NCBI RefSeq assembly: GCF_023520795.1
Contig: NZ_CP046605.1
Location: 930,001-994,000 of the forward strand
From: Corynebacterium accolens
Lineage (GTDB): Bacteria > Actinomycetota > Actinomycetes > Mycobacteriales > Mycobacteriaceae
Reading direction: 5' to 3'
DNA: 64,000 nucleotides
The notes under the pieces are model-generated. The model worked only from the letters and a program-made list of their open reading frames with translations, was not told the origin of the DNA and did no database searches. Positions 10,627 to 56,422 of the stretch are shown in pieces; the stretch's first letter is position 1, and every line of letters starts with the position of its first letter. The translations under genes and the position numbers were made by a program.

Positions 10627-10734
10627 ACCTGCGCCCTCAATCTTCATCCGTAAACCTCGCGCTTCATCCCTTGTCCTGCAACCCCACCCTTCAATCCTCA
10701 TCCTGTAACCCGCCCTTCGCGCTTGCCGCGAGCC
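10627..10734 (+). repeat. Degenerate tandem repeat, 27-nt period, four units
   Basis: Units begin at 10627, 10654, 10681 and 10708, each starting ACC. Units 2 and 3 end TCCTGCA and TCCTGTA; units 1 and 3 share CCCTCAATC/CCTTCAATC then TTCATCC/CTCATCC. Unit 4 runs into the left arm of the palindromic element at 10711. Confidence 0.6.
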
Positions 10735-10777
10735 TCATTTCGGTTAGCGCTCCTATCCCCCGTGAGCGCGAAGGGTG
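10711..10777. repeat. Palindromic element 1 of 17
   Basis: Left arm 10711-10726 (CGCCCTTCGCGCTTGC), 35-nt core, right arm 10762-10777 (GTGAGCGCGAAGGGTG). It is the only copy lying upstream of two divergent genes. Confidence 0.75.
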
Positions 10778-10879
10778 GGGAGAGGGGGATGGCGCAAACA
10801 AGATGCTGGGTGTACCCAATAGGTAGCCCGTGAACCTCCTGGTACCTTTACTCTTATTTCTTTTACAGGAGGTAGAGGT

Positions 10880-11995
10880 ATGGGCTGGATAAAGCCGTTA
10901 ATTGGCGTTGCCGTACTCGGTGGCGTGGTGTCGATGGGAGTCGGTGTAGCGAAGAGTGACGAGCACGCAGTGGTCAATCGCGTCATCGATGGCGACACCA
11001 TAGACGTCACGCTTGATGGCGAAAAGACGAGGGTTCGACTCCTCAATATCGATACTCCCGAAATCGGGCGCAACGGGAGGCCCAGCGAATGCTTAGCGGA
11101 AGAAGCCAAGGAGTACCTCGAAGATCGATTGCCACAAGGAACCGAGGTGACACTGGAATACGACGAGGAGAAGACTGATAAGTATGGGCGCACGTTAGCC
11201 GGTGTCTTTCTTGGTGGCGATCTCGTAAATGCAGACATTGCTGCTGAGGGGCTTGCAGTTGCCAAAAAGATTGGCGCTAATGGCAAGTTCTATAACGAGG
11301 TAAAAGAAGCAGAAAGCGGGCCGCGGACTAAGGGCACGGGAGTCTTCGGGGTTTCCGATGAATGCCAAGTATCCAGCGATGAAGATATGGCAGAGTCACT
11401 TCAGCAAGCTGAAAGTGCTACGGCTGCTGCCGCTGGGATCGGAATTATTGCTGCCAACATCGATAGCGACGACGGTGGGGCCACAAAGGCTCTGGCCCAG
11501 ATCTACGCTGCCCGGAAGGGGTTGGACGCCTTGCGTGGACGTAGCGATGATCGCAGTGAGTTCCAAAAAGCCGCATATCCAGAAGCTCCAGAGCGCTTGG
11601 CAAAACAGATGGAGAAGGAACTATCTGAACATGAAGAAGAAATTGAGGAACAGGTAGAGACCGCCAAGCGGGAAAAGGCGAAAGAAGAGGAGCGAAGGGA
11701 ACAAGAGCGCGAGCGCCAGGAGGCGGCTGAGCGCGAAGCGGCGGAGCGAGAGACTGAGCGCGAGAGGCGACTGGCAGAAGAAGCTGCACATGTAGACGCC
11801 ACAGCGCCCGCCGCAGGGTCTAATTCAAACACGGCCGGAAGCCAGTACATGGTCCCGCAGCCGCAACAGGCACCACGCGTGGATACCTACACCGGGTGCC
11901 GTGCATACGGCGGCAACTACGCCTTTACCTCCGTGGATAAGAAGGGCCGTGCCTACGCAAAGATTGATTGCACGACCAAGCAACAAATCGGCTAA
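10880..11995 (+). CDS. Secreted or membrane-anchored thermonuclease-family protein with coiled-coil tail
   Basis: 371 residues with an AGGAGG ribosome site. Residues 1-25 are a signal peptide or anchor. Residues 30-160 are a staphylococcal-nuclease domain: VIDGDTIDV, the substrate and catalytic region VRLLNIDTPEIG, then DKYGRTLAGVFLGGDLVN and AAEGLA, with the essential Arg/Glu/Arg set apparently present. The middle is Ala/Gly-rich; about 235-310 is an almost pure Glu/Arg/Lys coiled coil. The C-terminus (about 340-371) has two cysteines around an aromatic, Gly-rich segment. It probably cleaves DNA outside the membrane. The long coiled coil is unusual for the family. Confidence 0.85.
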   Translation: MGWIKPLIGVAVLGGVVSMGVGVAKSDEHAVVNRVIDGDTIDVTLDGEKTRVRLLNIDTPEIGRNGRPSECLAEEAKEYLEDRLPQGTEVTLEYDEEKTDKYGRTLAGVFLGGDLVNADIAAEGLAVAKKIGANGKFYNEVKEAESGPRTKGTGVFGVSDECQVSSDEDMAESLQQAESATAAAAGIGIIAANIDSDDGGATKALAQIYAARKGLDALRGRSDDRSEFQKAAYPEAPERLAKQMEKELSEHEEEIEEQVETAKREKAKEEERREQERERQEAAEREAAERETERERRLAEEAAHVDATAPAAGSNSNTAGSQYMVPQPQQAPRVDTYTGCRAYGGNYAFTSVDKKGRAYAKIDCTTKQQIG

Positions 11996-12014
11996 CTGCT
12001 CAGTTTTAGAACTC

Positions 12015-12081
12015 CGCCCTTCGCGCTCACCGCGAGCGCAACGCGTCGGTGAAACCCCAATGCCCGTGAGCGCGAAGGGCG
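12015..12081. repeat. Palindromic element 2 of 17
   Basis: Arms 12015-12030 and 12066-12081 match the consensus perfectly; the core is 35 nt. The right part of the core (GGTGAAACCCCAATGCCC) is nearly the same as in element 3, the left part is not. Confidence 0.85.
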
Positions 12082-12158
12082 GTGGGACGGGGGACGGGGC
12101 GCGATGCATCTTAGGCCTCAACGTAACGCACTGCCCGTCCGTTCGAATCCGTCCACCT

Positions 12159-12225
12159 CACCCTTCGCGCTCACCGTGAGCACAGTGCCCCGGTGAAACC
12201 CCAACGCCCGTGAGCGCGAAGGGCG
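12159..12225. repeat. Palindromic element 3 of 17
   Basis: Arms 12159-12174 (CACCCTTCGCGCTCAC) and 12210-12225 around a 35-nt core whose right half is shared with element 2. Confidence 0.85.
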
Positions 12226-12299
12226 ATGGGGCACTACGAGGAAACTAAGAGGACAGCGTGGAATCAAAGCAGCGGGGCGCCGTCAGCTGTCATACTGGA

Positions 12300-12899
12300 A
12301 TGATGAAGATTCTGGTAACTGCTTTTGATGCCTTTGGTGGCGAAGAAATTAACCCTACGGAACGCGCGCTGGATCGCTTGCCGGATGAAATCGGTGGCGC
12401 GCAGATTATTAAGCATCCTGTGCCAACAGTGTTCGGTGAAGCACTGAAGCAGGCAATTGCTGTGGCCGAGAAAGAAAACGTGGACGCGGTGGTCTGCCTG
12501 GGACAGGCCGGCGGGCGGGGCCATATCACTCCGGAGCGGGTGGGCATCAACTTGGCGGATGCTTCTATCCCGGATAATGCTGGTAACCAGCCCAGCGATG
12601 AACCAGTGGTTGAAGGTGGCCCGGCCGCGTACTTTTCCACCCTGCCAGTCAAGGCAATGGTTGCAGCGATTCAGGAGGCCGAGATTCCAGCGCAAGTCTC
12701 GACCACGGCGGGAACATTCGTCTGCAACCACCTGCTCTATGGCCTGCTGCATCATTTCAAAGATACGCAGGTAAAAGCAGGCTTTATCCACGTGCCGTTT
12801 ATTAAGGAACAGGCTAAAGAAAACAGCCCGATGCTGGAGCTTACGGACGTCGTGCAGGGCGTGGAGCGCGCGATTAGTGCCGTGGCGAAAAGTGCTTAG
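12300..12899 (+). CDS. pcp: Pyrrolidone-carboxylate peptidase
   Basis: 199 residues from the ATG at 12300. An in-frame GTG at 12258 has a better ribosome site (AAGAGGA) and would add 14 non-conserved residues, so the start is uncertain. The catalytic triad of this cysteine peptidase is visible: Glu in ITPERVGIN, Cys142 in TFVCNHLLYG and His in GFIHVPF. It removes N-terminal pyroglutamate from peptides in the cytoplasm. It lies just before the formate dehydrogenase operon, which starts from its own promoter, so no functional link is implied. Confidence 0.93.
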   Translation: MMKILVTAFDAFGGEEINPTERALDRLPDEIGGAQIIKHPVPTVFGEALKQAIAVAEKENVDAVVCLGQAGGRGHITPERVGINLADASIPDNAGNQPSDEPVVEGGPAAYFSTLPVKAMVAAIQEAEIPAQVSTTAGTFVCNHLLYGLLHHFKDTQVKAGFIHVPFIKEQAKENSPMLELTDVVQGVERAISAVAKSA

Positions 12900-12906
12900 G
12901 GTGGCC

Positions 12907-12937
12907 TTGCTAGAGAAATTTTCCGCCCAAATATAGA
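12907..12937 (+). promoter_or_regulatory. Predicted promoter of the formate dehydrogenase operon (leaderless)
   Basis: TTGCTA (12907-12912) and TATAGA (12932-12937) are 19 nt apart. The start codon at 12947 is 9 nt after the -10 box and has no ribosome site, so the transcript would begin at or within a few bases of the ATG. Confidence 0.45.
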
Positions 12938-12946
12938 TTTAAAGTC

Positions 12947-15900
12947 ATGTCTCGCTTAAGTCCTCTCAACTGGCCGGTGGTGCGCCAGCTGCGTAGCGGC
13001 GATCCCTTTGGCAGGGATATCAATACGCAATCAACCAAGAGCAAGGAAAAGCACGGACGCACAGTGGAAGCTGACCGCGTGGTGCAATCCGTGTGTCCAT
13101 ATTGCGCGGTTGGTTGCGCCCAGCGCGTGTATGTCAAAGATGACCGGGTCATCCAGATTGAGGGCGATCCAGATTCGCCGATTTCGCGCGGGCGTCTGTG
13201 TCCCAAGGGCTCGGCATCGGAGCAGTTGGTCAACTCCGCAACGCGATTGACCAAGATTAAATATCGCGCCCCGCACTCCACCGAGTGGCAGGAGCTGGAT
13301 GAAGACACCGCGATGGACATGATCGCGGATCGTTTCTTGGAAGCGCGCCGGAAGGGCTGGCAAGACACCGATGATTCGGGGCGGACTCTAAACCGCACGA
13401 TGGGTATCGCTGGCCTTGGCGGCGCGACCTTGGATAATGAGGAAAACTACCTCATTAAGAAGCTTTTTACCGCTGCCGGTGCGGTGCAGCTCGAAAACCA
13501 GGCGCGCATATGACACTCCGCCACAGTTCCTAGTTTAGGAACTTCGTTTGGCCGCGGCGGCGCAACCCAACCGCTGCAGGATATGGCGAATGCTGATTGC
13601 ATCGTCATCGAGGGTTCGAATATGGCCGAGTGCCACCCGGTGGGATTCCAGTGGGTCGTAGAAGCCAAAAAGCGTGGTGCCCGCATTATTCACGTGGATC
13701 CGCGGTATACGCGTACCTCTGCGTTCTCTAACCGCCACATTGGCATTCGCGGCGGTACCGACGTGGTGCTGCTGGGTGCGGTCATTAACTACATGCTCCA
13801 GAATGAGCTGTACTTCCGCGATTATGTCGTCGCATATACTAATGCGCCGATGATCATCTCGGAGGATTACCAGGACACCGAGGAACTGGACGGACTGTTT
13901 TCTGGCTATGACCCGGAAACCGGCACGTATGTGACCGATTCGTGGCAGTACGTGCAAAAACCGGAAGGTTCTTCTTGGAATGTGGAGCGCGATGACACCC
14001 TGGAGCATCCGAATTCGGTTTTCCAGATTCTCAAGCGCCATTATGCGCGCTATACACCTGAGCTGGTAGAAGAAACCTGCGGCATCGCGCAGGAGGACTT
14101 CTACTACCTGGCGGATTCCATTGCGCAGAATTCCGATCCGGAACACACCACGTGTTTCGCTTATGCCTTGGGATTTACCCAGCACACCTTGGGAGCGCAG
14201 TTCATCCGTACCGCTGCGATCCTGCAGCTTTTGATGGGCAATGTGGGCCGCCCGGGCTCGGGAATCATGGCCCTGCGCGGGCATGCCTCCATTCAGGGTT
14301 CCACCGATATCCCGACCCTTTTCCACTCCCTGCCTGGCTACCTGCCCATGCCGAGCGTGGAAAAGCAGACGTGGCCGGAATTCGTGGATGAGATCCGGGA
14401 TGAGTCCCAAAAGGGCTTCTGGCAGATTGGCGAGAATTACGCCGTGTCCTTGATGAAGTCCTACTGGGGAGATGCGGCGACCAAGGAAAATAACTGGGGC
14501 TATGACCTTATGCCGCGCATTTCCGGCGCGCATTCTACCTACGAAACCCTGCAGGCCATGCTCAATGGTCAGGTAGATGGCTACTTCGTCTTCGGCCAAA
14601 ACCCGGCGGTGGCGCAGTCCAATGGCGGCATGCAGCGCCGCGGTTTGGCGTCGCTGAAGTGGCTGGTTGTGCGCGATTTCCAGGAAATCGAAACCGCATC
14701 GTTCTGGAAGGACGCGCCGGAGATTAAAAACGGCGAGCTGAAGACCGAAGACATCGAAACCGAGGTCTTCCTAATGCCCGCAGCCACCCACGTGGAAAAG
14801 GCCGGTACCTTTACTCAGACCCAACGTATGCTGCAGTGGCGCTTCCAAGCGGCACCGCCGCCAGGCGATGCCAAGAGCGATCTGTGGTTCTTCTACCAGC
14901 TGGGTAAGAAGCTGAAGGAACGCCTGCGCGATTCCACCGATCCGCGCGATCTCCCGCTCCAGAAGGTGACGTGGGATTACGTGGAAAATGAGGAAGGAGA
15001 GCCGAACTCCGAGGACGTCCTCAAAGAGATCAACGGCTACTACCTGGATGGGCCCAAGAAGGGTGAGCTTTTGCCCACCTTCGTGGAGATGAAGAATGAC
15101 GGCACGACTTCCGGCGGCTGCTGGATCTACACCGGCGTGTACAAGGATGGCGTCAACCAGTCCGCGCGCAAGGTCCCGGGGTCGGAGCAGAACGAGGTCG
15201 CGCCCGAGTGGGGCTGGGTCTGGCCTGCTAACCGCCGCATTTTGTACAACCGCGCTTCGGCTAAGCCGGATGGCGCCCCGTGGTCCGAGCGCAAGAAGTA
15301 CGTGTGGTGGGACGAGGCCCAGGGCAAGTGGGTAGGCGATGACGTCCCTGACTTCCCGGTGACGAAGTCGCCGGAGTACAAGGCTCCTGCCGATGCCGTC
15401 GGTCCCGACGCCCTCGATGGCACGGACGCCTTCATCATGCAGGCGGACGGTCGCGGTTGGCTCTTTGCGCCTTCCGGGCTTTCCGATGGCCCTTTGCCCA
15501 CCCACTATGAGCCGCAGGAGTCCCCGGTGACCAATGTGCTGTATAAGCAGCAGCAATCGCCGACGCGCTTGACCATCAAGCGCCCGGATAACCTGCAGCG
15601 TCCAGAACCGGGCATGCCCGGTGCGGAGGTTTTCCCGTTCGTATTTTCTACCTACCGCCTCACGGAGATGTACACCTCGGGTGCGATGTCGCGCCGCCTG
15701 CCTTATTTGGCGGAGCTGCAACCTGGCCTATTCTGCGAGGTGGATAAGGACTTGGCCGCAAAACGTGGTCTGGAAAATGGCGAGTGGGCGACGATCATCT
15801 CGCCGCGCGGTGTGATTGAGGCGCAGGTCTTGGTCACCGATCGCATGCAGATGCTGAAGATCAATGGGGAAGAATTCCACCAGATTGGCCTGCCCTTCCA

Positions 15901-16222
15901 CTACGGCGAGTCCGAGACCACCGCTGTGGCAGGCGACGGCGCTAACGATCTCTTGGGCCTTACGCTCGAGCCGAATGTGTTCATTCAGAACTCAAAGATT
16001 GGTGCCTGCGATATCCAACCGGGCCGCCGGCCAAGGGGAGAAGGTCGCTTGAAGCTGCTCAAGCAGTACCAGGAGAGGGCGCAGTTAAGTGTGGATTCCG
16101 GCAATGATTTGTTGTCGGTTCCTGACTCGTTTACCTATAACCCGGAACCCGAAAAGCATGGCCAGCCTGGGGCGGAAAGTAGTGACGGCGAGACGGCAAG
16201 TAAAGGCGAAGAAGGTAAGTAA
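12947..16222 (+). CDS. fdhA: Formate dehydrogenase catalytic subunit, selenocysteine-containing
   Basis: 1091 residues if the in-frame TGA at 13511-13513 is read as selenocysteine 189; with stop reading it would fall into 188 and 879-residue fragments. The context NQARI-U-HSATVPSLGTSFGRGG matches the active site of formate dehydrogenases, where Sec ligates Mo or W. Cys50, Cys53, Cys57 and Cys85 bind the [4Fe-4S] cluster. The C-terminal domain (from about 900) binds the bis-MGD cofactor. It oxidises formate to CO2. The N-terminus has no twin-arginine signal, so the enzyme should be cytoplasmic, unlike FdnG/FdoG of enterobacteria. First gene of fdhA-fdhB-fdhC. Sec machinery genes lie 2 kb downstream. 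Confidence 0.95.
13511..13552 (+). promoter_or_regulatory. Selenocysteine codon and bacterial SECIS hairpin in fdhA
   Basis: TGA (13511-13513) is followed by a stem AGTTCCTA (13525-13532) / TAGGAACT (13536-13543) with apical GTT, and an outer GCCA (13520-13523) / TGGC (13549-13552). Position 11-40 nt after the UGA and the GU-containing loop suit a SelB-bound SECIS inside the reading frame. Confidence 0.85.
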
Positions 16223-17281
16223 ATGACTAATCTACTGACCGAGGACGCGGGCCGGCACGGCTATGATTCCTACCGCCGCATGGCCTTTTTCACCGATACG
16301 TCCGTGTGCATCGGCTGCAAGGCCTGCGAGGTGGCGTGCAAGGAATGGAACCGCAACCCGGTAGAGGGATATGACGTCACCGGTGATTCCTATGACAACA
16401 CCGGTGCCTTGGGCGCTAATACGTGGCGGCATGTGGCCTTCGTGGAACAAAACAACGACCGCATTGAGAAGGCACGCGAAGAGGGAAAACAGCTTATTTC
16501 CCTGGGCATGCCCACCATCGGTGGAAAGCCTGACGAGGTCGATACCACTCCGCCGGATACGGATACGTTCCGGTGGTTGATGTCCTCGGACGTCTGCAAG
16601 CACTGCACGCATGCAGGGTGTTTGGATGTCTGCCCCACAGGCGCGCTCTTCCGCACCGAGTTTGGCACCGTGGTCGTCCAAGATGATGTGTGTAATGGCT
16701 GCGGAACCTGCGTGGCGGGGTGCCCCTTCGGCGTCATCGAACGCCGCGATGACGGCGGGGTGTCGTTGAAATACGATAAGACCGCGACGGTGGATTATCA
16801 GGATAATTCGCACGCCGGTATTAATGTGCTGAAAAAGCTCAAGCAGCGCAAACCCCAAGGCACGGATCACACGCCGGGCGAGGCGATGCCGATTAAGAAT
16901 GTGGGCGTCGCCCAGAAGTGCACCATGTGCTATGACCGCCTGAAACAGGGCGAGCAACCGGCGTGCTCCAAGACGTGTCCCACCGATTCCATTCAGTTCG
17001 GTACCTATGAGGACATGCTGGCCGCGGCGAAGGATCGCGTGCGCGTCCTGCACGAACAGGGCATAACGGAGGCGCGGCTCTACGGCGCCAATGACAACGA
17101 TGGCGTGGGCGGAACCGGCTCTATCTTCTTATTGCTAGATTCGCCAGAGGTCTATGGCCTGCCGCCGGATCCGCGCGTGCCCACTGCGGATTTGCCGAGC
17201 ATGTATAAGACCGCGGCCAAGGCCATCGGCGGGATGGCGCTGGCCGTGGCGGGTTCCTTTTTGATTGGAGGGCGCAAATGA
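16223..17281 (+). CDS. fdhB: Formate dehydrogenase iron-sulfur (beta) subunit
   Basis: 352 residues. Four ferredoxin-type clusters are seen: CIGCKACEVAC starting at residue 29, then CKHCTHAGCLDVCP, CNGCGTCVAGCPFG and CTMCYDRLKQGEQPACSKTCP. It passes electrons from the catalytic subunit to the membrane subunit. A hydrophobic C-terminal segment (about 328-349) can anchor it to the membrane, as in FdnH. It begins directly after the fdhA stop and overlaps fdhC by the ATGA junction, so the three are one translationally coupled unit. Confidence 0.92.
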   Translation: MTNLLTEDAGRHGYDSYRRMAFFTDTSVCIGCKACEVACKEWNRNPVEGYDVTGDSYDNTGALGANTWRHVAFVEQNNDRIEKAREEGKQLISLGMPTIGGKPDEVDTTPPDTDTFRWLMSSDVCKHCTHAGCLDVCPTGALFRTEFGTVVVQDDVCNGCGTCVAGCPFGVIERRDDGGVSLKYDKTATVDYQDNSHAGINVLKKLKQRKPQGTDHTPGEAMPIKNVGVAQKCTMCYDRLKQGEQPACSKTCPTDSIQFGTYEDMLAAAKDRVRVLHEQGITEARLYGANDNDGVGGTGSIFLLLDSPEVYGLPPDPRVPTADLPSMYKTAAKAIGGMALAVAGSFLIGGRK

Positions 17282-18393
17282 GCGGTTTTGATGAGTACCG
17301 GCCACCGCAGCCGGAGCGGCCGAATCGCTACCGCAACTTCGATGGGCCGAAGCGCAAGAAGAAGCGCAAGCGCCCGGGTGCGGGTGCGCAGGATGGCTCC
17401 AAAGAGGAGCGGATGGCAGAAGACTTCGAGTTTTCTTCCTATTACGGCAGGCCGGTAGTTAAGGCCCCGCCGTGGGAGTGGCCCATCGGTGGGTATTTCT
17501 TCTTGGGCGGTATTGCCGGCGGTTCGGGTCTTCTCGCCACCGGTGCACAGGCCGCAGGCAACGCACCTTTGCGCCGGACCACGCGGGTAGCGGCCTTTGG
17601 CGCGGCGGCCGCCGGTTCGGTCTTTTTGATTTTAGATCTGGGCCGGCCGGAGCGCGCGTTGAATATGTTCCGCGTCTTCAAGGTGACCTCACCGATGTCG
17701 CTCGGATCGTGGCTGCTCGCGGGCTTTTCCACCGCGGCGGCCATTCCGGCAGCGGTAGAGGTGGATAATGCGACCAAGCGGAAGCTGCCGCTTCCGAAGT
17801 GGCTGCGCGCGAGCCTAGGCAAGGCCGCGACTCCGGCCGGGGTGATAACCGGTGTGCTCGGCGGCCCGTTGGCCGGATATACGGCGGTGTTGCTGTCCAA
17901 TACGTCCAACCCGGTATGGAATGACATGAAGCGGCACCTGCCCTATGTCTTTGTATCCTCTGCCTCGGCAGCGGCCTCCGGCCTGGCGATGGTGACCACT
18001 CCGGTAAAGCACGCCGGGCCCGCCCGCGCCTTGGGCATGGCAGCTGCGGCCAGCGATATCGCGGCGACGAAGGTGCTAGAAAGCAATATGGAGCCGGAGC
18101 CGCGCGAGGAATTGCATCACGGCACGCCGGGAAAGCTCATGCGCGCCTCGGAATACTTGATTGCCGCTGGCGGGGTGGGCAGCGCGGTGGCGGCGGCGAC
18201 GAAGTCCCGCGCCGTATCCGTGGCTTCGGGCCTGGCCTTGATGGCCGGATCCGCGTGCACGCGCTTTGGTGTGCTCAACGCTGGCTTGGAGGCGGTGAAG
18301 AACCCGGCCACCACGATGGGGCCGCAAAAACGCCGTGCGGAGCGGCGCCGGCGCGAGCAAGGGCTTGCCACCGACGTGCTCAGCGCAGGCTAG
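17278..18393 (+). CDS. NrfD/PsrC-family membrane subunit of formate dehydrogenase
   Basis: 371 residues. A basic, proline-rich head of about 55 residues (KRKKKRKR near 22-29) precedes GYFFLGGIAGGSGLLA and about eight membrane segments, the NrfD fold that passes electrons to quinone. The cytochrome-b type gamma subunit seen in Fdn/Fdo is absent, so this NrfD protein is presumably the quinone-reactive partner. The ATG overlaps the fdhB stop. It ends convergently 15 nt from the lipoprotein gene. Confidence 0.85.
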   Translation: MSGFDEYRPPQPERPNRYRNFDGPKRKKKRKRPGAGAQDGSKEERMAEDFEFSSYYGRPVVKAPPWEWPIGGYFFLGGIAGGSGLLATGAQAAGNAPLRRTTRVAAFGAAAAGSVFLILDLGRPERALNMFRVFKVTSPMSLGSWLLAGFSTAAAIPAAVEVDNATKRKLPLPKWLRASLGKAATPAGVITGVLGGPLAGYTAVLLSNTSNPVWNDMKRHLPYVFVSSASAAASGLAMVTTPVKHAGPARALGMAAAASDIAATKVLESNMEPEPREELHHGTPGKLMRASEYLIAAGGVGSAVAAATKSRAVSVASGLALMAGSACTRFGVLNAGLEAVKNPATTMGPQKRRAERRRREQGLATDVLSAG

Positions 18394-18408
18394 CGAGGGC
18401 TAGCTAGT

Positions 18409-18990
18409 TTAGTCGAGGTTGGCAAAGGAATCGGCGAGCTCTTCGCCGATCTCCTGCATACGCGATTGCTCCGCCTCCAAGGACTCGGAATCGCGGTGGA
18501 GATAGTAGTTCACCGCAGCGTCATGCACCGTGGTCACGCAGGTGGTTGAGACGGCATCCTCGACCTCCCAGGCCGAGCAATAAAAATGCCGGTCCGCGGC
18601 GGTGAAATCGAACGGCTTGTACTCATTTCTCGCGCGGCCTTGGGCGGCATTTTGCTTGTCGATGTCCTCATTGACCAGCTCCAAGTAGCGCTCCGCCGCC
18701 GCATCTGGGTCATCGGGGCATACGGCCTCATTATCGGATTCGTATTTCGTGCCCAGCACGCTAATCTTTTCCGGCGAATCGCCGCCGTAGAGCACGGAGA
18801 AGGAGTCATCCTCATCGCTGGTGGAATCGGGATCCTGGTTAGCGCCGATCAGGGTGTCTGGCAATGACGTGCGCAGTTCCGATAATTCGATGGGCGAGCA
18901 GCCGCGGTTGGTGGTCCCGTCGGCGCAGGCGACAAGGCTCGCACCGAGGGCGAGGGTGACAAGGGGCAGGCTAAAAAGGCGGTGGTTCAT
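18409..18990 (-). CDS. Putative lipoprotein encoded directly behind selD
   Basis: 193 residues from the ATG at 18990. Residues 1-22 are a lipoprotein signal with the box SLVAC (Cys22). The mature part is acidic, has further cysteines (CSP, VCPDDP, YCSAW, TTCVTT) that could form two disulfides, and is largely helical near the end. I do not recognise a family. The ATG is 1 nt after the selD stop, with no clear ribosome site, so translation is probably coupled to selD. The link to selenium use is positional only. Confidence 0.75.
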   Translation of the reverse strand: MNHRLFSLPLVTLALGASLVACADGTTNRGCSPIELSELRTSLPDTLIGANQDPDSTSDEDDSFSVLYGGDSPEKISVLGTKYESDNEAVCPDDPDAAAERYLELVNEDIDKQNAAQGRARNEYKPFDFTAADRHFYCSAWEVEDAVSTTCVTTVHDAAVNYYLHRDSESLEAEQSRMQEIGEELADSFANLD

Positions 18991-18991
18991 C

Positions 18992-19990
18992 TTAGGAAAT
19001 GGTGATGTAGGAATCGTCAGAAAGCGGTGTCGTGCGGCCGATGACGGGGTAGCCCGGGACTTCGCCGATGATGAGGAGGCCGCCGGAGGTTTGGGCATCG
19101 GCAAGCAGCACTAGCTCTTCCTCCGTAAGGGAGGAGGGCTGCAGGTGCGGGCGCACCCAATCCAGGTTGCGGCGCGAACCGCCCGGGATAAAGCCTTCCG
19201 CGAGGGCATCGGTGGCGCCGTCCACGGTGGGGACCGCGGAAAAGTCCAGCTCAGCCGATACGCCAGAGGCGCGGCACGTCTTGTACAGGTGGCCGAGCAG
19301 CCCGAAGCCGGTGACATCGGTGGCCGCGCGCGCACCTGCGGCGACCGCATCCTGGGCGGCCTGGCGGTTGAGCGCGGTCATGGAATCGATGGCGGCCTGG
19401 GATACCTCGCCGGTGGCCTTGTGTTTATTATTCAAAATGCCCACGCCGATGGGCTTGGTCAGCGTAATGGGCAGGCCGGCCTCCGCGGCATCGTTGCGCA
19501 TGAGTTTTTCGGGATCAACGATGCCCGTCGCCGCCATGCCGTACAAGGGCTCCGGGGCGGTAATGGAGTGGCCGCCGGTAATGGAAATGCCTGCCTCGGT
19601 GGCCTTATCCATGCCGCCGCGCAGCACCTCGCGCAGGACGTCCAAGCCAAGCTTCTCATTGGGCCAGCCCACGAGGTTGATGGCGGTAATGGGGGTGCCA
19701 CCCATTGCGTAGACATCAGATAGCGCATTGGCCGCGGCAATCTGGCCCCAGGTATAGGGATCATTGACCATGGGGGTGAAAAAATCCGCGGTGGAAATCA
19801 CGGCGACGCCGTTGTCGATTTTGACCGCTGCGGCGTCATCGCCATCGTCGAGGCCGACCAAGACATTGGGATCGTCCTTGCCAATGAGCCCTTCTACTGC
19901 TGACTCCAATTCGCCGGCGGGAATCTTGCAGGCACAACCGCCACCAGCGGCGAAAGAGGTTAAATCAATCTGCTCCGTCATGCTGGTCAT
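18992..19990 (-). CDS. selD: Selenide, water dikinase (selenophosphate synthase)
   Basis: 332 residues from the ATG at 19990 (or 329 from 19981); the frame is open further but crosses the tRNA-Sec gene. The N-terminal loop GGGCACKIP carries catalytic Cys19 and Lys22, so this is a Cys form, not a selenoprotein. GLDDGDDAAAV, STADFFTPMVNDPY and TDVTGFGLLGH are family blocks. SelD makes selenophosphate from selenide and ATP, the donor for SelA. Divergent from selC-selA-selB, with about 67 nt between for both promoters. Confidence 0.95.
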   Translation of the reverse strand: MTSMTEQIDLTSFAAGGGCACKIPAGELESAVEGLIGKDDPNVLVGLDDGDDAAAVKIDNGVAVISTADFFTPMVNDPYTWGQIAAANALSDVYAMGGTPITAINLVGWPNEKLGLDVLREVLRGGMDKATEAGISITGGHSITAPEPLYGMAATGIVDPEKLMRNDAAEAGLPITLTKPIGVGILNNKHKATGEVSQAAIDSMTALNRQAAQDAVAAGARAATDVTGFGLLGHLYKTCRASGVSAELDFSAVPTVDGATDALAEGFIPGGSRRNLDWVRPHLQPSSLTEEELVLLADAQTSGGLLIIGEVPGYPVIGRTTPLSDDSYITIS

Positions 19991-20057
19991 TTTACCCGCC
20001 GGAAAGTGGTGGGGCGCCGGCGGTGGGGTGCGCGCGGGTTCTGTAAAGTAGCCAGGC

Positions 20058-20152
20058 GGAGGCGTACGTGTCCTGGTGGGCGCCCCGGTCTTCAAAACCG
20101 GTGAGGCCGAGCAGCTCGGCCTGGCAGGTTCGATTCCTGTCCGCCTCCGCCA
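20058..20152 (+). tRNA. selC: tRNA-Sec (anticodon TCA)
   Basis: 95 nt including an encoded CCA. Features: anticodon stem CCGGT/ACCGG with loop CTTCAAA (anticodon 20092-20094), a long variable arm with GAGGCCGAG/CTCGGCCT pairing, T-arm GCAGGTTCGATTCCTGT and discriminator G73. The acceptor stem is GGAGGCGT against CCGCCTCC: seven pairs plus a T-C mismatch at the eighth position. It reads the UGA in fdhA after charging with Ser and conversion by SelA. selA starts 23 nt later, so the two may share a transcript. Confidence 0.95.
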
Positions 20153-20175
20153 TACGCGCGCAAGGAGGAAAACGA

Positions 20176-38349: not shown

Positions 38350-38399
38350 CTACCTGCTCCTAGCTCTGCCTAGCCCGGCTCGTTTCGCCACCCCGGCCC

Positions 38400-38466
38400 C
38401 GCCCTTCGCGCTCACCAGCGGGGGCTGCTGGGGTCTTTTTGTACCCGCCGGTGAGCGGCAAGGGCG
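38400..38466. repeat. Palindromic element 4 of 17
   Basis: Left arm 38400-38415 perfect; right arm 38451-38466 has the variant GTGAGCGGCAAGGGCG. Core 35 nt. Confidence 0.85.
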
Positions 38467-38504
38467 GGGAGGGGCATCGCCAAGCGAGTGCGTGCGGGGC
38501 ACTC

Positions 38505-38571
38505 ATCTCTTCGCGCTCACGGGAAGGTGGTTGTCGTGCGCAGCGCTCGCCCCCGGTGAGCGGCACGGGAG
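38505..38571. repeat. Palindromic element 5 of 17
   Basis: Left arm 38505-38520 (CATCTCTTCGCGCTCAC region), right arm 38556-38571 (GTGAGCGGCACGGGAG). Core 35 nt. The most degraded arms of the family. Confidence 0.7.
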
Positions 38572-38575
38572 GCCT

Positions 38576-38641
38576 CGCCCTTCGCGCTCACCGACAACAG
38601 TTGCCGGCGGTGAAACCTACTCCCTGTGAGCGGCAAGGGCG
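38576..38641. repeat. Palindromic element 6 of 17
   Basis: Left arm 38576-38591, right arm 38626-38641 (GTGAGCGGCAAGGGCG). Core 34 nt; its right half (CGGTGAAACCTACTCCCT) resembles that of elements 2 and 3. Confidence 0.85.
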
Positions 38642-38666
38642 GGAAGGCCGGGCGCCGCTGACGCTA

Positions 38667-38733
38667 GCCCCTTCGCGCTCACGGGGCGTAGCAAACGGAA
38701 ACCACCCGCTGTCCGCGGTGAGCGCGAAGGGCG
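38667..38733. repeat. Palindromic element 7 of 17
   Basis: Left arm 38667-38682 (AGCCCCTTCGCGCTCAC region), right arm 38718-38733 perfect. Core 35 nt; its AAACGGAAACCACCCG resembles part of element 9. Confidence 0.85.
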
Positions 38734-38768
38734 GGTGGTGGAGTGCGTGATGGCGGTGGGAGTGAGCA

Positions 38769-39245
38769 TTAGTCCTCGAGCTCGGCGTCGAGGCGGGACT
38801 GGTCGCGGCGGTTTTGCTTCCGTCGGAGTGCGGGCGAGATGAGGACGGACGTGATGGCACCTACGGTGGCGCCGATGAGGTAGGGGGCGGCGGCATCGGA
38901 AAGCGCGTAGGCGTGGTAGGCGATGCCGGCGAAGCAGAGGAACATCGGGATGAGGTAGAGGGCGGTCAAAGTCCAGTTGGAGCGGCCGGTGGGGGTGGCG
39001 ATGTGCCTGCGCATCCAGGCGGCGCTGAGGGACGTGCCGGCGATGGAGGGGACGATGGCGAGGAGGGCGAGGAGGCTGAGGCGGCCGGGGAGGGACCAGG
39101 CGAGGATGGCGGCGACGATGAGCTCGAGGAAGGTGATTGGGGTGAGGGTGATGGCGGAGGCCTTGGTGAGGATGTCCCGCTCGAACTCGTCGGTGGAGGC
39201 GCGCTCGATGTGGTTGAGGGATATGTTGGCGATGGCGTTAATCAT
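38769..39245 (-). CDS. Small membrane protein paired with XRE regulator
   Basis: 158 residues from the ATG at 39245 (TTGGAG 10 nt ahead). Four hydrophobic segments between about 35 and 140, with an N-terminal amphipathic part and a charged tail (RRKQNRRDQSRLDAELED). No named family recognised. The start overlaps the end of the XRE gene by 8 nt, so both come from one transcript. Such regulator/membrane-protein pairs are common in Gram-positives, with the regulator usually controlling its own operon. Confidence 0.75.
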   Translation of the reverse strand: MINAIANISLNHIERASTDEFERDILTKASAITLTPITFLELIVAAILAWSLPGRLSLLALLAIVPSIAGTSLSAAWMRRHIATPTGRSNWTLTALYLIPMFLCFAGIAYHAYALSDAAAPYLIGATVGAITSVLISPALRRKQNRRDQSRLDAELED

Positions 39246-39447
39246 GTTGTTCAGCTCCAAAGATTTCTTCGACTGTTTTGTCTAGTTCGTGGCAGATGTC
39301 CAATGCGAGGTGCACGGACGGGGAGTAGTTGCCGCGCTCGATATTTGCGATAGTTTGCCGGGAGACGCTGACGCGCTCTGCTAGTTCGCCTTGCGACCAT
39401 TCGCGCCAGCGCCGCCACTTGCGGACCATGTTGGGTTGTCCGGCCAC
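39238..39447 (-). CDS. Small XRE-family helix-turn-helix regulator
   Basis: 69 residues from the GTG at 39447 (AGAGGTGATG just in front); the frame is open to 39537 without a better start. The HTH is REWSQGELAERVSVSRQTIANIERG, with the typical ending NYSPSVHLALDICHELDKTVEEIF. It resembles YozG-type regulators of about 65-70 residues. Likely an autoregulator of itself and the following membrane-protein gene. Confidence 0.85.
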   Translation of the reverse strand: MAGQPNMVRKWRRWREWSQGELAERVSVSRQTIANIERGNYSPSVHLALDICHELDKTVEEIFGAEQHD

Positions 39448-39512: not shown

Positions 39513-40358
39513 TTATACGCATAGATGCCAGCGCCAATATGGCTGGGTGGCGGACATAGGAAGCTGTGGCTTGCGGCCTTTGAGCAGGTCACGGGTGGCT
39601 TTGATAAGCAGGATGACTTGGTCAAGGTGGTGCGTGACGTCATCGGCAGTAAAGCGCAGGACCGCGTACCCGTGTGCGGTTGCGGCGTTCTGTTTGGAAC
39701 GGTCGGCCTGGAACGCGATGCTGTGGCTGTGGTAGGTCCAGCCGTCGATTTCCACGATGAGCTTGCCCATCAATAGGTCGAACCGGTACCCACACACCAG
39801 GGCGTTGTGAACAGGGAAAATGCCTTCTGCGCGCAGCGCGCGGCTGACTTTCCGCTCCGGCGGGCTATCCGCGCCGATGGCGGAGCGCCGAATCGTCTCC
39901 TTCAACGCACGCGGTGTCCGGCCCATTCGTTTGCGGTCCCGCTCCAGCCGGCCGGGCCCCTTTTCACCGCGGTAAAACTCTTCCAGCAGCGGGCCACAGG
40001 CCCTAGCAATCTTGCGAGCAGCCCACAGAACCTGCACCACCGGCAGCCCTTTGACCAGGCTCGTTGCCTTGAGGCGAGAATGCGAAACCCGGAAATTCTT
40101 ACCCCGCAGCGTGCGCGGGCCCTCCGCCTCCAGCGGAAACGTCAGCGGCCGGTCGAGGTGAATTTCTTGCGCGGTCTTCCCCGTAAAATGAATGCGGCTC
40201 AGCCCATGCATCAGGGCCTTCGCCACCGCCAGCGGCGACCACTCGTCGGTATAAATTCCCCGGTGCACGCGGTGCAGCTTGCCCGCGCGCACCCGCCGCC
40301 GAATCGCGTCCTTGCCTAGTCCCTGCTCGCGCAACTGCGCGGTTGTCCATGCCCCCAT
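39513..40358 (-). CDS. AbiEi-like N-domain / DUF559-like protein
   Basis: 281 residues. The N-terminus (TTAQLREQGLGKDAIRRRVRAGKLHRVHRGIY) is the winged-helix head shared with AbiEi antitoxins. The C-terminal part (about 175-265) resembles DUF559/Vsr-like nucleases: PERKVSRALRAEG, YRFDLLMGKLIVEIDGW and the end VLRFTADDV, with the possible PD-(D/E)xK residues Asp and Glu-x-Asp. Such single proteins are widespread in actinobacteria. No toxin gene (AbiEii) lies beside it, so a defence role is not shown. Confidence 0.8.
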   Translation of the reverse strand: MGAWTTAQLREQGLGKDAIRRRVRAGKLHRVHRGIYTDEWSPLAVAKALMHGLSRIHFTGKTAQEIHLDRPLTFPLEAEGPRTLRGKNFRVSHSRLKATSLVKGLPVVQVLWAARKIARACGPLLEEFYRGEKGPGRLERDRKRMGRTPRALKETIRRSAIGADSPPERKVSRALRAEGIFPVHNALVCGYRFDLLMGKLIVEIDGWTYHSHSIAFQADRSKQNAATAHGYAVLRFTADDVTHHLDQVILLIKATRDLLKGRKPQLPMSATQPYWRWHLCV

Positions 40359-40484: not shown

Positions 40485-40550
40485 CTCCCTTCGCGCTCAC
40501 CGCCCCCGCTTTCCGATGCCCATTTTTGGTTTCTGTGAGCGCGGAGGACG
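40485..40550. repeat. Palindromic element 8 of 17
   Basis: Left arm 40485-40500 (CTCCCTTCGCGCTCAC), right arm 40535-40550 (GTGAGCGCGGAGGACG). Core 34 nt, pyrimidine-rich at its right end. Confidence 0.8.
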
Positions 40551-40557: not shown

Positions 40558-40624
40558 ACCCCGTCGCGCTCACCGAGAGGTGAAAACGGAACACCCCGCC
40601 CTGCGCTGGTGAGCGCGAGGGGCG
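40558..40624. repeat. Palindromic element 9 of 17
   Basis: Left arm 40558-40573 (ACCCCGTCGCGCTCAC), right arm 40609-40624 (GTGAGCGCGAGGGGCG). Core 35 nt, partly like element 7. Confidence 0.8.
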
Positions 40625-47964: not shown

Positions 47965-47967
47965 GCC

Positions 47968-49360: not shown

Positions 49361-49426
49361 CGCCCTTCGCGCTCACCAGCAGCGCGCGGGGCGGTTCTTT
49401 TTCGCTTCCGGTGAGCGCGAAGGACG
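49361..49426. repeat. Palindromic element 10 of 17
   Basis: Left arm 49361-49376 perfect, right arm 49411-49426 (GTGAGCGCGAAGGACG). Core 34 nt. Confidence 0.85.
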
Positions 49427-49488
49427 GGTGTGGAATCGGCCAGTCACCGTACCCTCCCTTGGCGATCACGAGGAGCTGCTTGCCGATG
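49408..49488 (+). repeat. 81-bp direct repeat, copy 1
   Basis: Identical to 49679-49759. It starts with the right arm of element 10 and ends in the core of element 11, so the boundary lies inside two palindromes. Confidence 0.85.
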
Positions 49489-49520
49489 TTGCGACGCCTC
49501 GCCGGTGAGCGCGAAGGGCT
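49454..49520. repeat. Palindromic element 11 of 17
   Basis: Left arm 49454-49469 (CTCCCTTGGCGATCAC region), right arm 49505-49520 (GTGAGCGCGAAGGGCT). Core 35 nt, first 19 nt identical to element 13. Confidence 0.8.
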
Positions 49521-49630: not shown

Positions 49631-49697
49631 CGCCCTTTGCGCTCACGGCAAGCACATTCTGATGGCTGGAGTCGCTTGCCGGTGAGCGCGAAGGACG
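49631..49697. repeat. Palindromic element 12 of 17
   Basis: Left arm 49631-49646 (CGCCCTTTGCGCTCAC), right arm 49682-49697. Core 35 nt, which itself begins GGCAAGC and ends GCTTGCC. Confidence 0.85.
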
Positions 49698-49759
49698 GGT
49701 GTGGAATCGGCCAGTCACCGTACCCTCCCTTGGCGATCACGAGGAGCTGCTTGCCGATG
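49679..49759 (+). repeat. 81-bp direct repeat, copy 2
   Basis: Identical to 49408-49488, 271 bp downstream of it. It runs from the right arm of element 12 into the core of element 13. Confidence 0.85.
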
Positions 49760-49791
49760 CCCCTCCACCTTGCCCGTGAGCGCGAAGGGCG
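49725..49791. repeat. Palindromic element 13 of 17
   Basis: Left arm 49725-49740 (CTCCCTTGGCGATCAC), right arm 49776-49791 perfect. Core 35 nt; left half as element 11, right half different. Confidence 0.8.
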
Positions 49792-54007: not shown

Positions 54008-54019
54008 TACAATGCGCCC

Positions 54020-55150: not shown

Positions 55151-55252
55151 AACTCTTGCCATCTTAGTCACGGCGCTACCTCAGGTAAACACGCCCGCGC
55201 GGTAGACTCAGCGAGAAGCCACTGCATTTAGTGAAGGAGAACGTCTAACACC

Positions 55253-55993
55253 ATGCGCATGTTCGCCCGTCCTGCCCTTGCCTGTGCAGGCGCTGTACTC
55301 AGCGCCACGTTGCTGGCAGGGTGCGCTGACCACGTTGTTACCGAGCCCTCCGCAGAGGCTAGTGACCGCAAGTCCGTAGACATCGTGGTCGACCCAGATG
55401 ACACCGACCAAGTGGTGCTGGGCGAGATTTACCGCCAAACGCTCGCGCGGGCAGGGCGCGAGGCCACCGTGCTCAAAGAGGACAAATACCAGTCTCACGG
55501 AGACAAAGGCCGCAGCCTCAATCCAGAAGGCAACTTCTATGTTGGCTGTACGGGCGATTTCCTCAGCTATCTCAACCCCAGCGAGGCGCGCGACATCTCG
55601 CAAGATTATAAGAAGGCCGAAGAAGACAGCCAGCCAGGCGGGGAAGACTTCCTCGCCCGCACTCATATTGCGTTGATGTCCTCTCTGCCCACGGATCTAG
55701 CCACCGTAGAGCCCTCCGGAGCCTACGGTTGCGAGGACGCGGAGCCGGAACTGCCCGAAAACTTCGTGGTGGTTTATCAGAAGGGGCTTTTCGACCGTGA
55801 GGAAGAAATCGCCTTTGCTTCCCTCACCAAGTTCATCACGCACAAAGACCTCTTCGACTTAGCCGAAGACGCCGAGGAAAAGGGCAGCGTGGAAAAGGCC
55901 GTCCGCGAATGGATGCAATCCTCAGGCGGCGACATCGTTGACAGCGAAGGCGATTCCGCGTCCACCGGCGGTTCGGGCCTGACGAGCTCCTAG
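55253..55993 (+). CDS. Lipoprotein with truncated OpuAC/OsmF-like substrate-binding domain
   Basis: 246 residues. Lipoprotein signal with box LLAGC (Cys24). The segment QVVLGEIYRQTLARAGREATV, followed by a Gly/Cys patch FYVGCTGDFLSYLNP, resembles the first lobe of glycine-betaine-binding OpuAC/OsmF proteins, but the second lobe is partial and two further cysteines (VGCTG, YGCED) may form a disulfide. No ABC transporter genes are adjacent. The C-terminal 40 residues are acidic and Ser/Gly-rich. It may have lost a transport role. Divergent from mrp. Confidence 0.75.
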   Translation: MRMFARPALACAGAVLSATLLAGCADHVVTEPSAEASDRKSVDIVVDPDDTDQVVLGEIYRQTLARAGREATVLKEDKYQSHGDKGRSLNPEGNFYVGCTGDFLSYLNPSEARDISQDYKKAEEDSQPGGEDFLARTHIALMSSLPTDLATVEPSGAYGCEDAEPELPENFVVVYQKGLFDREEEIAFASLTKFITHKDLFDLAEDAEEKGSVEKAVREWMQSSGGDIVDSEGDSASTGGSGLTSS

Positions 55994-56043
55994 CCCGCGC
56001 TTCAATCACGCCTCACCCCGGCGCGCCCCTTGGCACCTCCACC

Positions 56044-56110
56044 CGCCCTTCGCGCTCACCGGCAGCCGACCTTTAGCGTGCGATCGCCCTCCCCGTGAGC
56101 GGCAAGGGCG
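56044..56110. repeat. Palindromic element 14 of 17
   Basis: Left arm 56044-56059 perfect, right arm 56095-56110 (GTGAGCGGCAAGGGCG). Core 35 nt, 3 differences from element 16. Confidence 0.85.
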
Positions 56111-56158
56111 GGTGGCTTCGCGCCTAGCTGCCGTACTCTCCCTTGGCGCTCACGGGCG
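56045..56158 (+). repeat. 114-bp near-identical duplication, copy 1
   Basis: Aligns without gaps to 56264-56377 with five C/T differences. It spans element 14 and the left arm of element 15. Confidence 0.8.
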
Positions 56159-56204
56159 GTGCGTGCTGATGACCATTCCGCTTCGCCGGTGAGCGCGAGG
56201 GGAG
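56138..56204. repeat. Palindromic element 15 of 17
   Basis: Left arm 56138-56153 (CTCCCTTGGCGCTCAC region), right arm 56189-56204 (GTGAGCGCGAGGGGAG). Core 35 nt. TACTCTCCC and GGGGAGAGTA extend the stem. Confidence 0.8.
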
Positions 56205-56262
56205 AGTAGGTGGGGTGTGGTTGTGTCGGCCGCGCCTTTCCTGGGCTGCGATACCTGCACCG

Positions 56263-56329
56263 CGCCCTTCGCGCTCACCGGCAGCTGACCTTCAGCGTGC
56301 GATTGCCCTCCCCGTGAGCGGCAAGGGCG
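56263..56329. repeat. Palindromic element 16 of 17
   Basis: Left arm 56263-56278 perfect, right arm 56314-56329 (GTGAGCGGCAAGGGCG). Core 35 nt, close to element 14. Confidence 0.85.
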
Positions 56330-56377
56330 GGTGGCTTCGCGCCTAGCTGCCGTATTCTCCCTTGGCGCTTACGGGCG
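56264..56377 (+). repeat. 114-bp near-identical duplication, copy 2
   Basis: Second copy, 219 bp after the first. The identity ends inside the core of element 17, which then differs from element 15. Confidence 0.8.
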
Positions 56378-56422
56378 TTGCTCGCCGACGCCCCAACTCT
56401 TTCCCGGTGAGCGCGAGGGGCG
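56357..56422. repeat. Palindromic element 17 of 17
   Basis: Left arm 56357-56372 (CTCCCTTGGCGCTTAC region), right arm 56407-56422 (GTGAGCGCGAGGGGCG). Core 34 nt. Confidence 0.8.

What the first reader, a model, noticed from the sequence alone, without database searches (positions are those of the whole stretch)
10711..56422. Seventeen palindromes with conserved 16-nt arms and a core fixed at 34-35 nt but variable in sequence
The arms CGCCCTTCGCGCTCAC and GTGAGCGCGAAGGGCG recur 17 times in six intergenic gaps and in no gene. The core is 35 nt in twelve copies and 34 nt in five, although most cores are unrelated over part or all of their length. A REP-type element would normally vary in both or be copied whole. 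Fixed spacing with free sequence suggests that a protein, or a hairpin loop of set size, reads the arms at a set distance, or that the element was assembled from half-sites. Most lie between convergent genes or after 3' ends.
Basis: seen in the sequence. Interest (0 to 1): 0.85.

Follow-up and report, generated by a model that had tools for sequence, protein, structure and literature searches.

The report
Scattered binding sites of one nuclease
Short two-armed DNA sites scattered between genes of a skin bacterium appear to be private docking sites of one DNA-binding, nuclease-like protein encoded in their midst, an arrangement that recurs with other arm sequences in related bacteria.

Summary
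I found 24 in the genome, all within 855-1146 kb, all with 34/35-nt cores. No hairpin selection is seen: arms of one element match no better than arms shuffled between elements of the same species. In orthologous elements arms are 74-93% identical and cores 50-76%, while spacing is kept within 1 nt in 81 of 89. So the arms behave as independent double-stranded half-sites at a fixed distance.

The likely reader is encoded in the field: window 39516-40358, an AbiEi-type winged helix fused to a DUF559/Vsr-like endonuclease domain. 31 of 32 element-rich Corynebacterium genomes have its orthologue (the 32nd assembly breaks there); the three other genomes with a close homologue carry variant-arm elements. 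Over half of 47 more distant homologues are preceded by palindromes, with other arms. A pattern drawn from such sites in Mycobacterium-like genomes found copies in 79 of 148 genomes, up to 91.

I infer sites bound by this protein, as known for AbiEi operators, and multiplied in a way resembling REP/TnpA-REP but with unrelated parts. Binding, cleavage and copying are untested.

The parts
10711..10777 (.). element, core 35, in the divergent gap upstream of the SNase gene 10880
12015..12081 (.). element, core 35
12159..12225 (.). element, core 35
38400..38466 (.). element, core 35, convergent gap 38350-38768 beside the nuclease gene
38505..38571 (.). element, core 35, weak outer arms
38576..38641 (.). 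element, core 34
38667..38733 (.). element, core 35
39516..40358 (-). gene for P0002, 281 aa: N-terminal AbiEi-type winged helix, C-terminal DUF559/Vsr-like (MTES_1575) endonuclease domain; proposed reader of the elements
   Evidence: Pfam; PADLOC; PDB profile hits 3hrl and 3r3p; co-occurrence
40485..40550 (.). element, core 34, in the 5' gap of the P0002 gene (possible operator)
40558..40624 (.). element, core 35, in the 5' gap of the P0002 gene (possible operator)
49361..49426 (.). element, core 34
49454..49520 (.). element, core 35; left half shared with 49725
49631..49697 (.). element, core 35
49725..49791 (.). element, core 35; left half shared with 49454
56044..56110 (.). element, core 35; duplicate of 56263
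56138..56204 (.). element, core 35
56263..56329 (.). element, core 35; duplicate of 56044
56357..56422 (.). element, core 34

Best explanation
Each element is one bipartite double-stranded binding site: two inverted half-sites of about 21 bp (TnCyG-GTGAGCG-nn-AAGGGCG read outward), 24-25 bp apart at their inner edges. The proposed reader is the protein of window 39516-40358, an AbiEi-type winged helix fused to a DUF559/Vsr-like endonuclease. Proposed mechanism: a protein pair grips both half-sites, bends the central DNA and places its nuclease domains across the dyad; this explains a fixed spacing with largely free core sequence. The two sites in the gene's own 5' gap serve autoregulation, as in AbiEi operators. 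The further copies are a field of dispersed sites that multiplied around the gene and whose arms are kept by selection. Shown here: fixed spacing, independent arms, arm conservation, linkage and co-occurrence with this gene, and the recurrence of gene-plus-palindrome with other arms in relatives. Inferred: binding, bending, autoregulation, cleavage and the way of multiplication.
For: Co-occurrence: 32 of 242 genus genomes have 7-24 exact elements and the other 210 have 0-2. 31 of those 32 have a P0002 homologue of at least 216 bits (cut-off set after seeing the table, any value from 199 to 216 gives the same set of 34 genomes). The 32nd, G184, is 82% complete and its contig begins 80 bases before the cluster that neighbours the gene in relatives. 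The 3 other genomes at that level all have variant-arm elements with the same outer geometry in the stretches read: G187 5, G174 7, G072 2. Fisher p 1.5e-34, ignoring phylogeny. Linkage: in 10 of 10 genomes examined an element lies 0.5-0.8 kb from the gene's midpoint; in the own genome density falls from 6.0 per 10 kb (0-5 kb) to 2.7, 0.5, 0.5 and 0.1 (100-200 kb). Specificity: 47 more distant homologues of the genus have an upstream palindrome of score 12 or more in 26 of 47, against 6 of 47 downstream, 3 of 470 shuffles and 3 of 306 random windows; arms differ, and 18 of the 21 scoring 13 or more span 60-80 bp. Selection: identity of arm/core/outer flank is 0.92/0.76/0.78, 0.90/0.69/0.59, 0.81/0.67/0.57, 0.81/0.59/0.51, 0.93/0.68/0.59, 0.83/0.50/0.41 and 0.74/0.55/0.47 in seven species pairs; core length within 1 nt in 81 of 89. 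Precedent: AbiEi binds two 23-bp inverted repeats 3 bp apart, its Mycobacterium relative repeats 13 bp apart (PMC7319586, passages); an EDxHD endonuclease dimerises on a target of nearly 60 bp (PMC3943268, passages). Active-site-like residues E168, D194, H210, D219 and K222 are invariant, and E203 and D205 at least 90% conserved, in 43 homologues. Prediction: a pattern made from gene-upstream palindromes of Mycobacterium-like genomes found copies in 79 of 148 genomes (54 with five or more, up to 91) against 1 control match.
Against: No binding, cleavage or expression data exist here. The co-occurrence is confounded by shared ancestry, and cut-offs were chosen afterwards. The field could be a feature of the region in which the gene merely sits; chromosome-wide copies in Mycobacterium-like genomes argue against that. 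The Mycobacterium pattern was written from sites of some of the same genomes, so one copy each there is expected by construction; 2 of 12 genomes with a strong homologue have no copy, 1 has only two, and 13 of the 79 genomes have a single match. Outside the genus the upstream excess is weak: score 12 or more in 11 upstream and 7 downstream windows of 19 loci, partly because such genes can be flanked on both sides. 9 of 47 genus homologues show no upstream palindrome of score 9 or more. Ortholog assignment may be helped by the arms themselves; 8 of 89 core lengths strayed by 2-9 nt. One orthologue (G210) has a stop codon inside although its genome is element-rich. How copies arise is unknown.
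Confidence: 0.78

Rival explanations
1. The sites work for the cell: the protein bound to many sites acts as a domain organiser or as a transcription roadblock between convergent genes (like MatP/matS, recalled, or phage stoperators), rather than being mainly a mobile-element remnant.
For: Arms look selected. 18 of 24 own elements were called convergent; one gap with two elements was miscalled because 12258-12899 on + is Peptidase_C15, so 16 of 24, while convergent gaps hold 31% of gap bases in that calling. The field covers one chromosome region, before a dif-like site at 1281656.
Against: Own sites lie on one side of the dif-like site only; the listed copies in Mycobacterium-like genomes are spread over their chromosomes. 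Copy number varies widely between species. A convergent bias is also what mere tolerance of insertions would give.
Confidence: 0.3
2. RNA or single-strand hairpins: bidirectional terminators or mRNA stabilisers with a loop of fixed size.
For: The arms are complementary and elements lie after 3' ends; some cores just after a gene seem to hold part of a hairpin and a T-run (e.g. 38400, 49361; read by eye). In two Mycobacterium-like genomes with mixed subfamilies the halves match better than shuffled halves (z 3.0 and 3.2).
Against: No arm-arm compensation in Corynebacterium: 1951 of 2288 positions match, 0.853 against 0.859 in shuffles. A hairpin needs neither a fixed 34-35 nt loop nor fixed arm sequences. 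No Rfam family matches at the elements (whole window at gathering scores; 10500-14000 at E up to 1).
Confidence: 0.06
3. Conventional REP/BIME elements spread by a TnpA-REP (RAYT) HUH transposase.
For: Small intergenic palindromes in clusters; REPs too can concentrate near their transposase gene (PMC8266576, passages). In 8 of 26 loci with a 49-base element in Mycobacterium-like genomes TAG stands just outside the arm, 3 of them GTAG (by eye).
Against: Two half-sites at fixed distance without arm covariation, no constant GTAG tag beside the 17 window elements (by eye), and association with a DUF559/AbiEi gene. A RAYT gene was not searched for.
Confidence: 0.04
4. The palindromes belong to the conserved dapC-odhA gene region and have another reader; the nuclease gene is a passenger.
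For: Elements occur at matching places in the same gene region of related species.
Against: Other homologues carry palindromes with other arms, two paralogues in one Mycobacterium-like genome have different arms, and dispersed copies there track the homologue (10 of 12 against 0 of 10, p 1e-4, partly by construction).
Confidence: 0.1

Closest known systems
REP / TnpA-REP (RAYT) systems, REPtrons
   Same: Mostly single-copy nuclease gene bordered by short palindromes, further copies dispersed between genes, sometimes concentrated near the gene (PMC8266576, passages); palindrome families matched to protein families.
   Different: The protein here is winged helix plus DUF559/Vsr-like, not HUH. 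Elements are two double-stranded half-sites at fixed spacing, without arm covariation or a constant GTAG tag.
AbiEi antitoxin operators (AbiE type IV toxin-antitoxin)
   Same: AbiEi-type N-terminal winged helix; a site of two long inverted repeats at a fixed spacing upstream of the gene (PMC7319586, passages).
   Different: C-terminal nuclease-like domain instead of the antitoxin domain, no recognised toxin gene next to it, wider spacing, and many dispersed copies of the site.
EDxHD homing endonucleases (I-Bth0305I)
   Same: Profile match to 3r3p, a mobile intron protein (E 3.6e-5; that 3r3p is I-Bth0305I is recalled); nuclease domain tethered to a DNA-binding part, dimer on a target of nearly 60 bp (PMC3943268, passages).
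   Different: Not in an intron or intein; targets are dispersed inverted repeats; no cleavage or homing shown.
Mycobacteriophage stoperators
   Same: One repressor with many scattered binding sites (PMC9283540, title and start of abstract in the listing).
   Different: Per its title that repressor is monomeric and reads an asymmetric sequence, in phage genomes; here the sites are dyads on a chromosome.

Membership tests
REP/RAYT | stem-loop whose stem is the recognised form | tested here: not met
   No arm-arm covariation in 143 Corynebacterium elements
REP/RAYT | GTAG (or similar) tetranucleotide tag at the foot | tested here: not met
   No constant tetranucleotide beside the 17 window elements, by eye; in Mycobacterium-like loci 3 of 26 have GTAG
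REP/RAYT | associated HUH (Y1) transposase gene | not tested
   Not searched; the linked gene is DUF559/AbiEi
REP/RAYT | gene bordered by palindromes, copies dispersed between genes | tested here: met
AbiE type IV toxin-antitoxin | AbiEi-type N-terminal winged helix | tested here: met
   PF13338 E 9.5e-6 (26.1 bits, cut-off 25); PADLOC AbiEi models, best E 7.3e-6
AbiE type IV toxin-antitoxin | adjacent AbiEii (DUF1814) toxin gene | tested here: not met
   The neighbours at 38772-39260 (no family) and 40697-42079 (amino acid permease) have no such domain
AbiE type IV toxin-antitoxin | inverted-repeat operator in the gene's promoter | tested here: inconclusive
   Two elements lie in the 5' gap, and 26 of 47 homologues have an upstream palindrome of score 12 or more; promoter and binding untested
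EDxHD/Vsr-like endonuclease | Vsr-like catalytic domain with conserved acidic/His residues | tested here: met
   DUF559 match above and MTES_1575 match below its cut-off; 3hrl 2.6e-11 and 3r3p 3.6e-5; conserved residues; by sequence only
EDxHD/Vsr-like endonuclease | DNA cleavage at the target | not testable with these tools
   needs the purified protein
Intrinsic terminator / structured RNA | conserved base-paired stem | tested here: not met
   no Rfam match at the elements

The most novel reading that the evidence does not exclude
Stand-alone AbiEi-DUF559 proteins of actinobacteria are a second class of palindrome-associated nuclease, unrelated to RAYTs: each is flanked by, and reads, a private family of two-armed sites of fixed length, and the nuclease multiplies these sites (first near its gene, in some lineages genome-wide) by cutting at the dyad and provoking repair-copying.
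Probability: 0.45. Interest if true: 0.92.

Novelty: new variant of a known kind. Interest (0 to 1): 0.84.

Why it matters
Proteins of the AbiEi-DUF559 type turned up in 162 of 242 Corynebacterium genomes, and I found no assigned role for them in the papers searched. Linking them to private palindrome families gives them a testable DNA target, explains a class of intergenic repeats that looks like REPs, and offers an independent case for asking how a nuclease gene and a dispersed repeat family co-evolve. Because arm sequences change with the protein, the pairs form a natural set for reading the DNA specificity of this winged helix.

Tried and rejected
Hairpin/RNA reading: disfavoured by the lack of arm covariation and of any Rfam match at the elements. 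CRISPR-like reading (34-35 nt variable spacers): dropped because arms are inverted rather than direct and cores are still recognisably shared between close species. Terminus-organising site: weakened because the field lies only before the dif-like site at 1281656. Phage or plasmid origin: P0002 has no match in phages and three partial matches in plasmids, two of them annotated DUF559. The pattern in viral contigs gave 4 stretches; by eye one (L345) looks like a real element and three like chance. Gene-finding for gap types was a rough ORF heuristic. Upstream/downstream contrast was weak outside the genus (19 of the 28 loci returned, the others being partial hits or hits with a stop). N34 matches outside the field in other genomes were fetched (L186-L197) but never analysed, so I cannot say whether they are real elements. 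In the other species' stretches the matrix also paired arms at spacings other than 32-36 (G084 5 of 18 pairs, G005 7 of 21, G011 3 of 12, G064 1 of 9, G056 2 of 10), at least some of them joining neighbouring elements. Paper searches: Corynebacterium palindromes, AbiEi, DUF559 with Corynebacterium (one paper, not opened), AbiEi with DUF559 (none), MTES_1575/DUF559, stoperator, EDxHD, Mycobacterium palindromes, REPtron. None of the listings and passages I saw describes this association; the library lacks most subscription journals. Passages of PMC2267715 list stem-loop families of M. tuberculosis, M. leprae and C. diphtheriae; I did not compare those families with these elements.
Full report
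Where it is. The window is positions 930001-994000 of a single-contig genome of 2,465,625 bases. Its odhA product is 97-100% identical to those of Corynebacterium sp. ACRPS, Corynebacterium sp. KPL1814 and C. macginleyi, among others, so it is a Corynebacterium near C. macginleyi (nearness to C. accolens is my own inference, not a call).

Check of the observation. Seventeen elements lie in six gaps. Cores are 35 nt in 13 and 34 nt in 4. Genome-wide the inner arms CGCTCAC...GTGAGCG occur at spacings of 28-48 in 20 places, all at 34 or 35. A weight matrix finds 24 elements in 845-1174 kb, 18 with core 35 and 6 with core 34; four pairs at other spacings are single, two of them joining neighbours, and the reversed own sequence gives none, the reversed G084 stretch one. 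Other species have the same spacing, mostly 34. At the named odhA loci, 13 of 70 carry 18 elements with cores of 34 or 35, among them C. tuberculostearicum, C. curieae, C. macginleyi, C. kefirresidentii and a strain filed as C. aurimucosum; three further loci show one weak pair each at other spacings. The cores are not wholly free: in seven hand-picked species groups the five bases next to each arm lean to C-R-G-n-R, two species show a dyad centre CTnGCnAG, one shows (by eye) A/T tracts about 10 bp apart, and all seven exceed a core-shuffling control.

Not a hairpin. In 143 elements from 10 genomes the two arms of an element match at 1951 of 2288 positions (0.853); with right arms shuffled among elements of the same species the mean is 0.859. 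Variants such as GTGAGCGGCAAGGGCG occur in one arm without a matching change in the other. Arms therefore evolve as separate double-stranded half-sites. Between orthologous elements of seven species pairs arms are 0.74-0.93 identical, cores 0.50-0.76 and outer flanks 0.41-0.78; 81 of 89 core lengths stayed within 1 nt, the eight others being 31, 32 (four times), 37, 40 and 44, all in pairs with G084, G011 or G056. The ortholog search could be helped by the arms themselves, so the contrast is safest for the close pairs G005-G004 (12 of 14 elements) and G250-G280 (22 of 24).

The candidate reader. Between two clusters of the window lies a gene for a 281-aa protein (39516-40358, minus strand) with an AbiEi-type winged helix and a DUF559/MTES_1575 endonuclease-like domain. 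PADLOC lists a homing endonuclease model for the C-terminal part and AbiEi models for the N-terminal part. A profile of 43 homologues hits the PDB entries 3hrl (endonuclease-like, E 2.6e-11) and 3r3p (mobile intron protein, E 3.6e-5). Residues E168, D194, H210, D219 and K222 are invariant in the 43; E203 and D205 are at least 90% conserved. Passages of PMC3710099 describe the MTES_1575 domain as a Vsr-type REase. No structure could be predicted.

Co-occurrence. Of 242 genus genomes 51 have an exact match; 32 have 7-24 and 19 have 1-2. The protein search over the same number of genus genomes gives 162 with some homologue; 34 reach 216 bits, the next lower score being 198. 31 of these 34 are among the 32 element-rich ones. 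The missing rich genome (G184) is an 82% complete assembly whose contig starts 80 bases before the cluster that neighbours the gene in relatives, with no homologue on that contig. The three high scorers without exact elements (G187, G174, G072; 47-54% identity) do have elements with the outer arm CCCTTCGCG and other inner bases, at 5, 7 and 2 places in the 40, 80 and 32 kb read. One more, G296 (39% identity), has two elements, one on each side of its gene; the stretches of five others (G033, G154, G068, G001, G055) show none of this family beyond one 3-mismatch pair in G033. The bit cut-off was chosen after seeing the table, and relatedness is not corrected for (Fisher p 1.5e-34). One orthologue (G210) has a stop codon inside.

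Linkage. In 10 of 10 genomes read, an element lies 0.5-0.8 kb from the gene's midpoint. In the own genome density falls from 6.0 per 10 kb within 5 kb to 0.1 at 100-200 kb (the stretch read reaches 125 kb to one side and 204 kb to the other). Passages of PMC8266576 report the same kind of local concentration for two Marinomonas REP families and suggest recent arrival with multiplication nearby.

Other arms for other homologues. For 47 less similar homologues of the genus (33-48% identity, nearly all 40% or less) I compared 480-base windows upstream and downstream. The best inverted repeat scored 12 or more in 26 of 47 upstream and 6 of 47 downstream, against 3 of 470 dinucleotide shuffles and 3 of 306 random windows. 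Of the 21 scoring 13 or more, 18 span 60-80 bp, one 56 and two 48. Arms differ between groups, e.g. CGCTTCACCAG-28-CTGGTGAAGCG or close variants in G033, G154, G068, G272 and G155, and TGATGCGTTTTTGCAAATAG in the own paralogue at 2132110. Nine of 47 show nothing upstream at score 9 or more. Several of the 47 are close relatives, so they are not independent.

Mycobacterium-like genomes (genus g37; I infer the name from genome size and family). Of 15 homologues of that genus scanned, 10 have an upstream palindrome whose arm holds GATTT. A pattern written from these, GATTTNNGNG-N21..37-CNCNNAAATC, matches in 79 of 148 genomes of that genus: 13 with one match, 12 with two or three, 54 with five or more, up to 91, and one control match in all. 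26 of 30 loci hold a 49-base match. In the 22 genomes present in both searches, 10 of 12 with a homologue at E 1e-10 or better have at least two copies, against 0 of 10 of the rest (p 1e-4); the thresholds are post hoc and the pattern came from some of these genomes. In 20-kb stretches around nine such genes (eight genomes) every gene has at least one element within 85 bp and four have one on each side; all 13 elements found are 49 bases long although 44-55 was allowed, and two paralogues in one genome (G304) carry different arms. In two genomes (G557, G618) the two halves match no better than shuffled halves; in two with mixed subfamilies (G565, G602) they match better (z 3.0 and 3.2), as expected if both halves belong to one subfamily, though pairing selection there is not excluded.

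How it most likely works. AbiEi binds two 23-bp inverted repeats 3 bp apart and bends its promoter; its Mycobacterium relative binds repeats 13 bp apart, and the authors suggest the extra 10 bp may make room for a larger C-terminal domain (PMC7319586, passages). Here half-sites of about 21 bp lie 24-25 bp apart, again about one turn more, which would fit the different C-terminal nuclease domain. A review's passages say an EDxHD homing endonuclease dimerises on a target of nearly 60 bp (PMC3943268). I therefore infer a protein pair that reads the arms and spans the core, autoregulates from the two sites in its 5' gap, and has many further sites. Whether those sites multiplied by nuclease action, by recombination (duplicates and shared halves exist), or are kept for a cell function is open. 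Binding and cleavage are untested.

Known or new. It is not a REP by the features tested (no hairpin selection, no constant GTAG tag), nor an AbiE toxin-antitoxin pair (no toxin neighbour), though it works like both in part. In the searches named under Tried and rejected I saw no description of the association. I rate it a new variant of a known kind: a nuclease gene with a private dispersed palindrome family, built from unrelated parts.

Noticed in passing
window 12947-23289: Selenocysteine cluster: tRNA-Sec at 20058-20148, SelA, SelB, an AIR-synthase-like protein (probably SelD), and formate-dehydrogenase-like genes whose alpha subunit is split between 12947-13510 (Fe4S4 domain) and 13583-16219 (molybdopterin domain) by a TGA at 13511, probably read as selenocysteine; not settled.
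   Followed up: partly
window 56044-56422: The pair of elements is duplicated as a unit (56044 and 56263 differ by 3 of 35 core bases); a named near relative (L046) shows two elements in this gap where the window has four.
   Followed up: partly
L091 (Corynebacterium sp. KPL1814), 6772-8871: The elements lie about 1.9 kb further from odhA than in its close relatives, which suggests an insertion between odhA and the elements.
   Followed up: no
L345, 889-945: A contig filed as viral carries an element with the same core as one in genome G056 (C570:90867), so it may be a prophage with flank or a mis-filed host contig.
   Followed up: no
G170 and G250 elements: Dyad centre CTnGCnAG well conserved in these two species but free in the window's group; may mark contact by the nuclease domain.
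   Followed up: no
L186-L197: CGCTCAC-N34-GTGAGCG also occurs outside the fields in several genomes, at a spacing of 34 more often than I expected, some shared between species and perhaps in coding sequence; fetched, not analysed.
   Followed up: no
window 56440-56500: A long inverted repeat with an A/T-rich loop just after the last element, read by eye, perhaps the odhA terminator.
   Followed up: no
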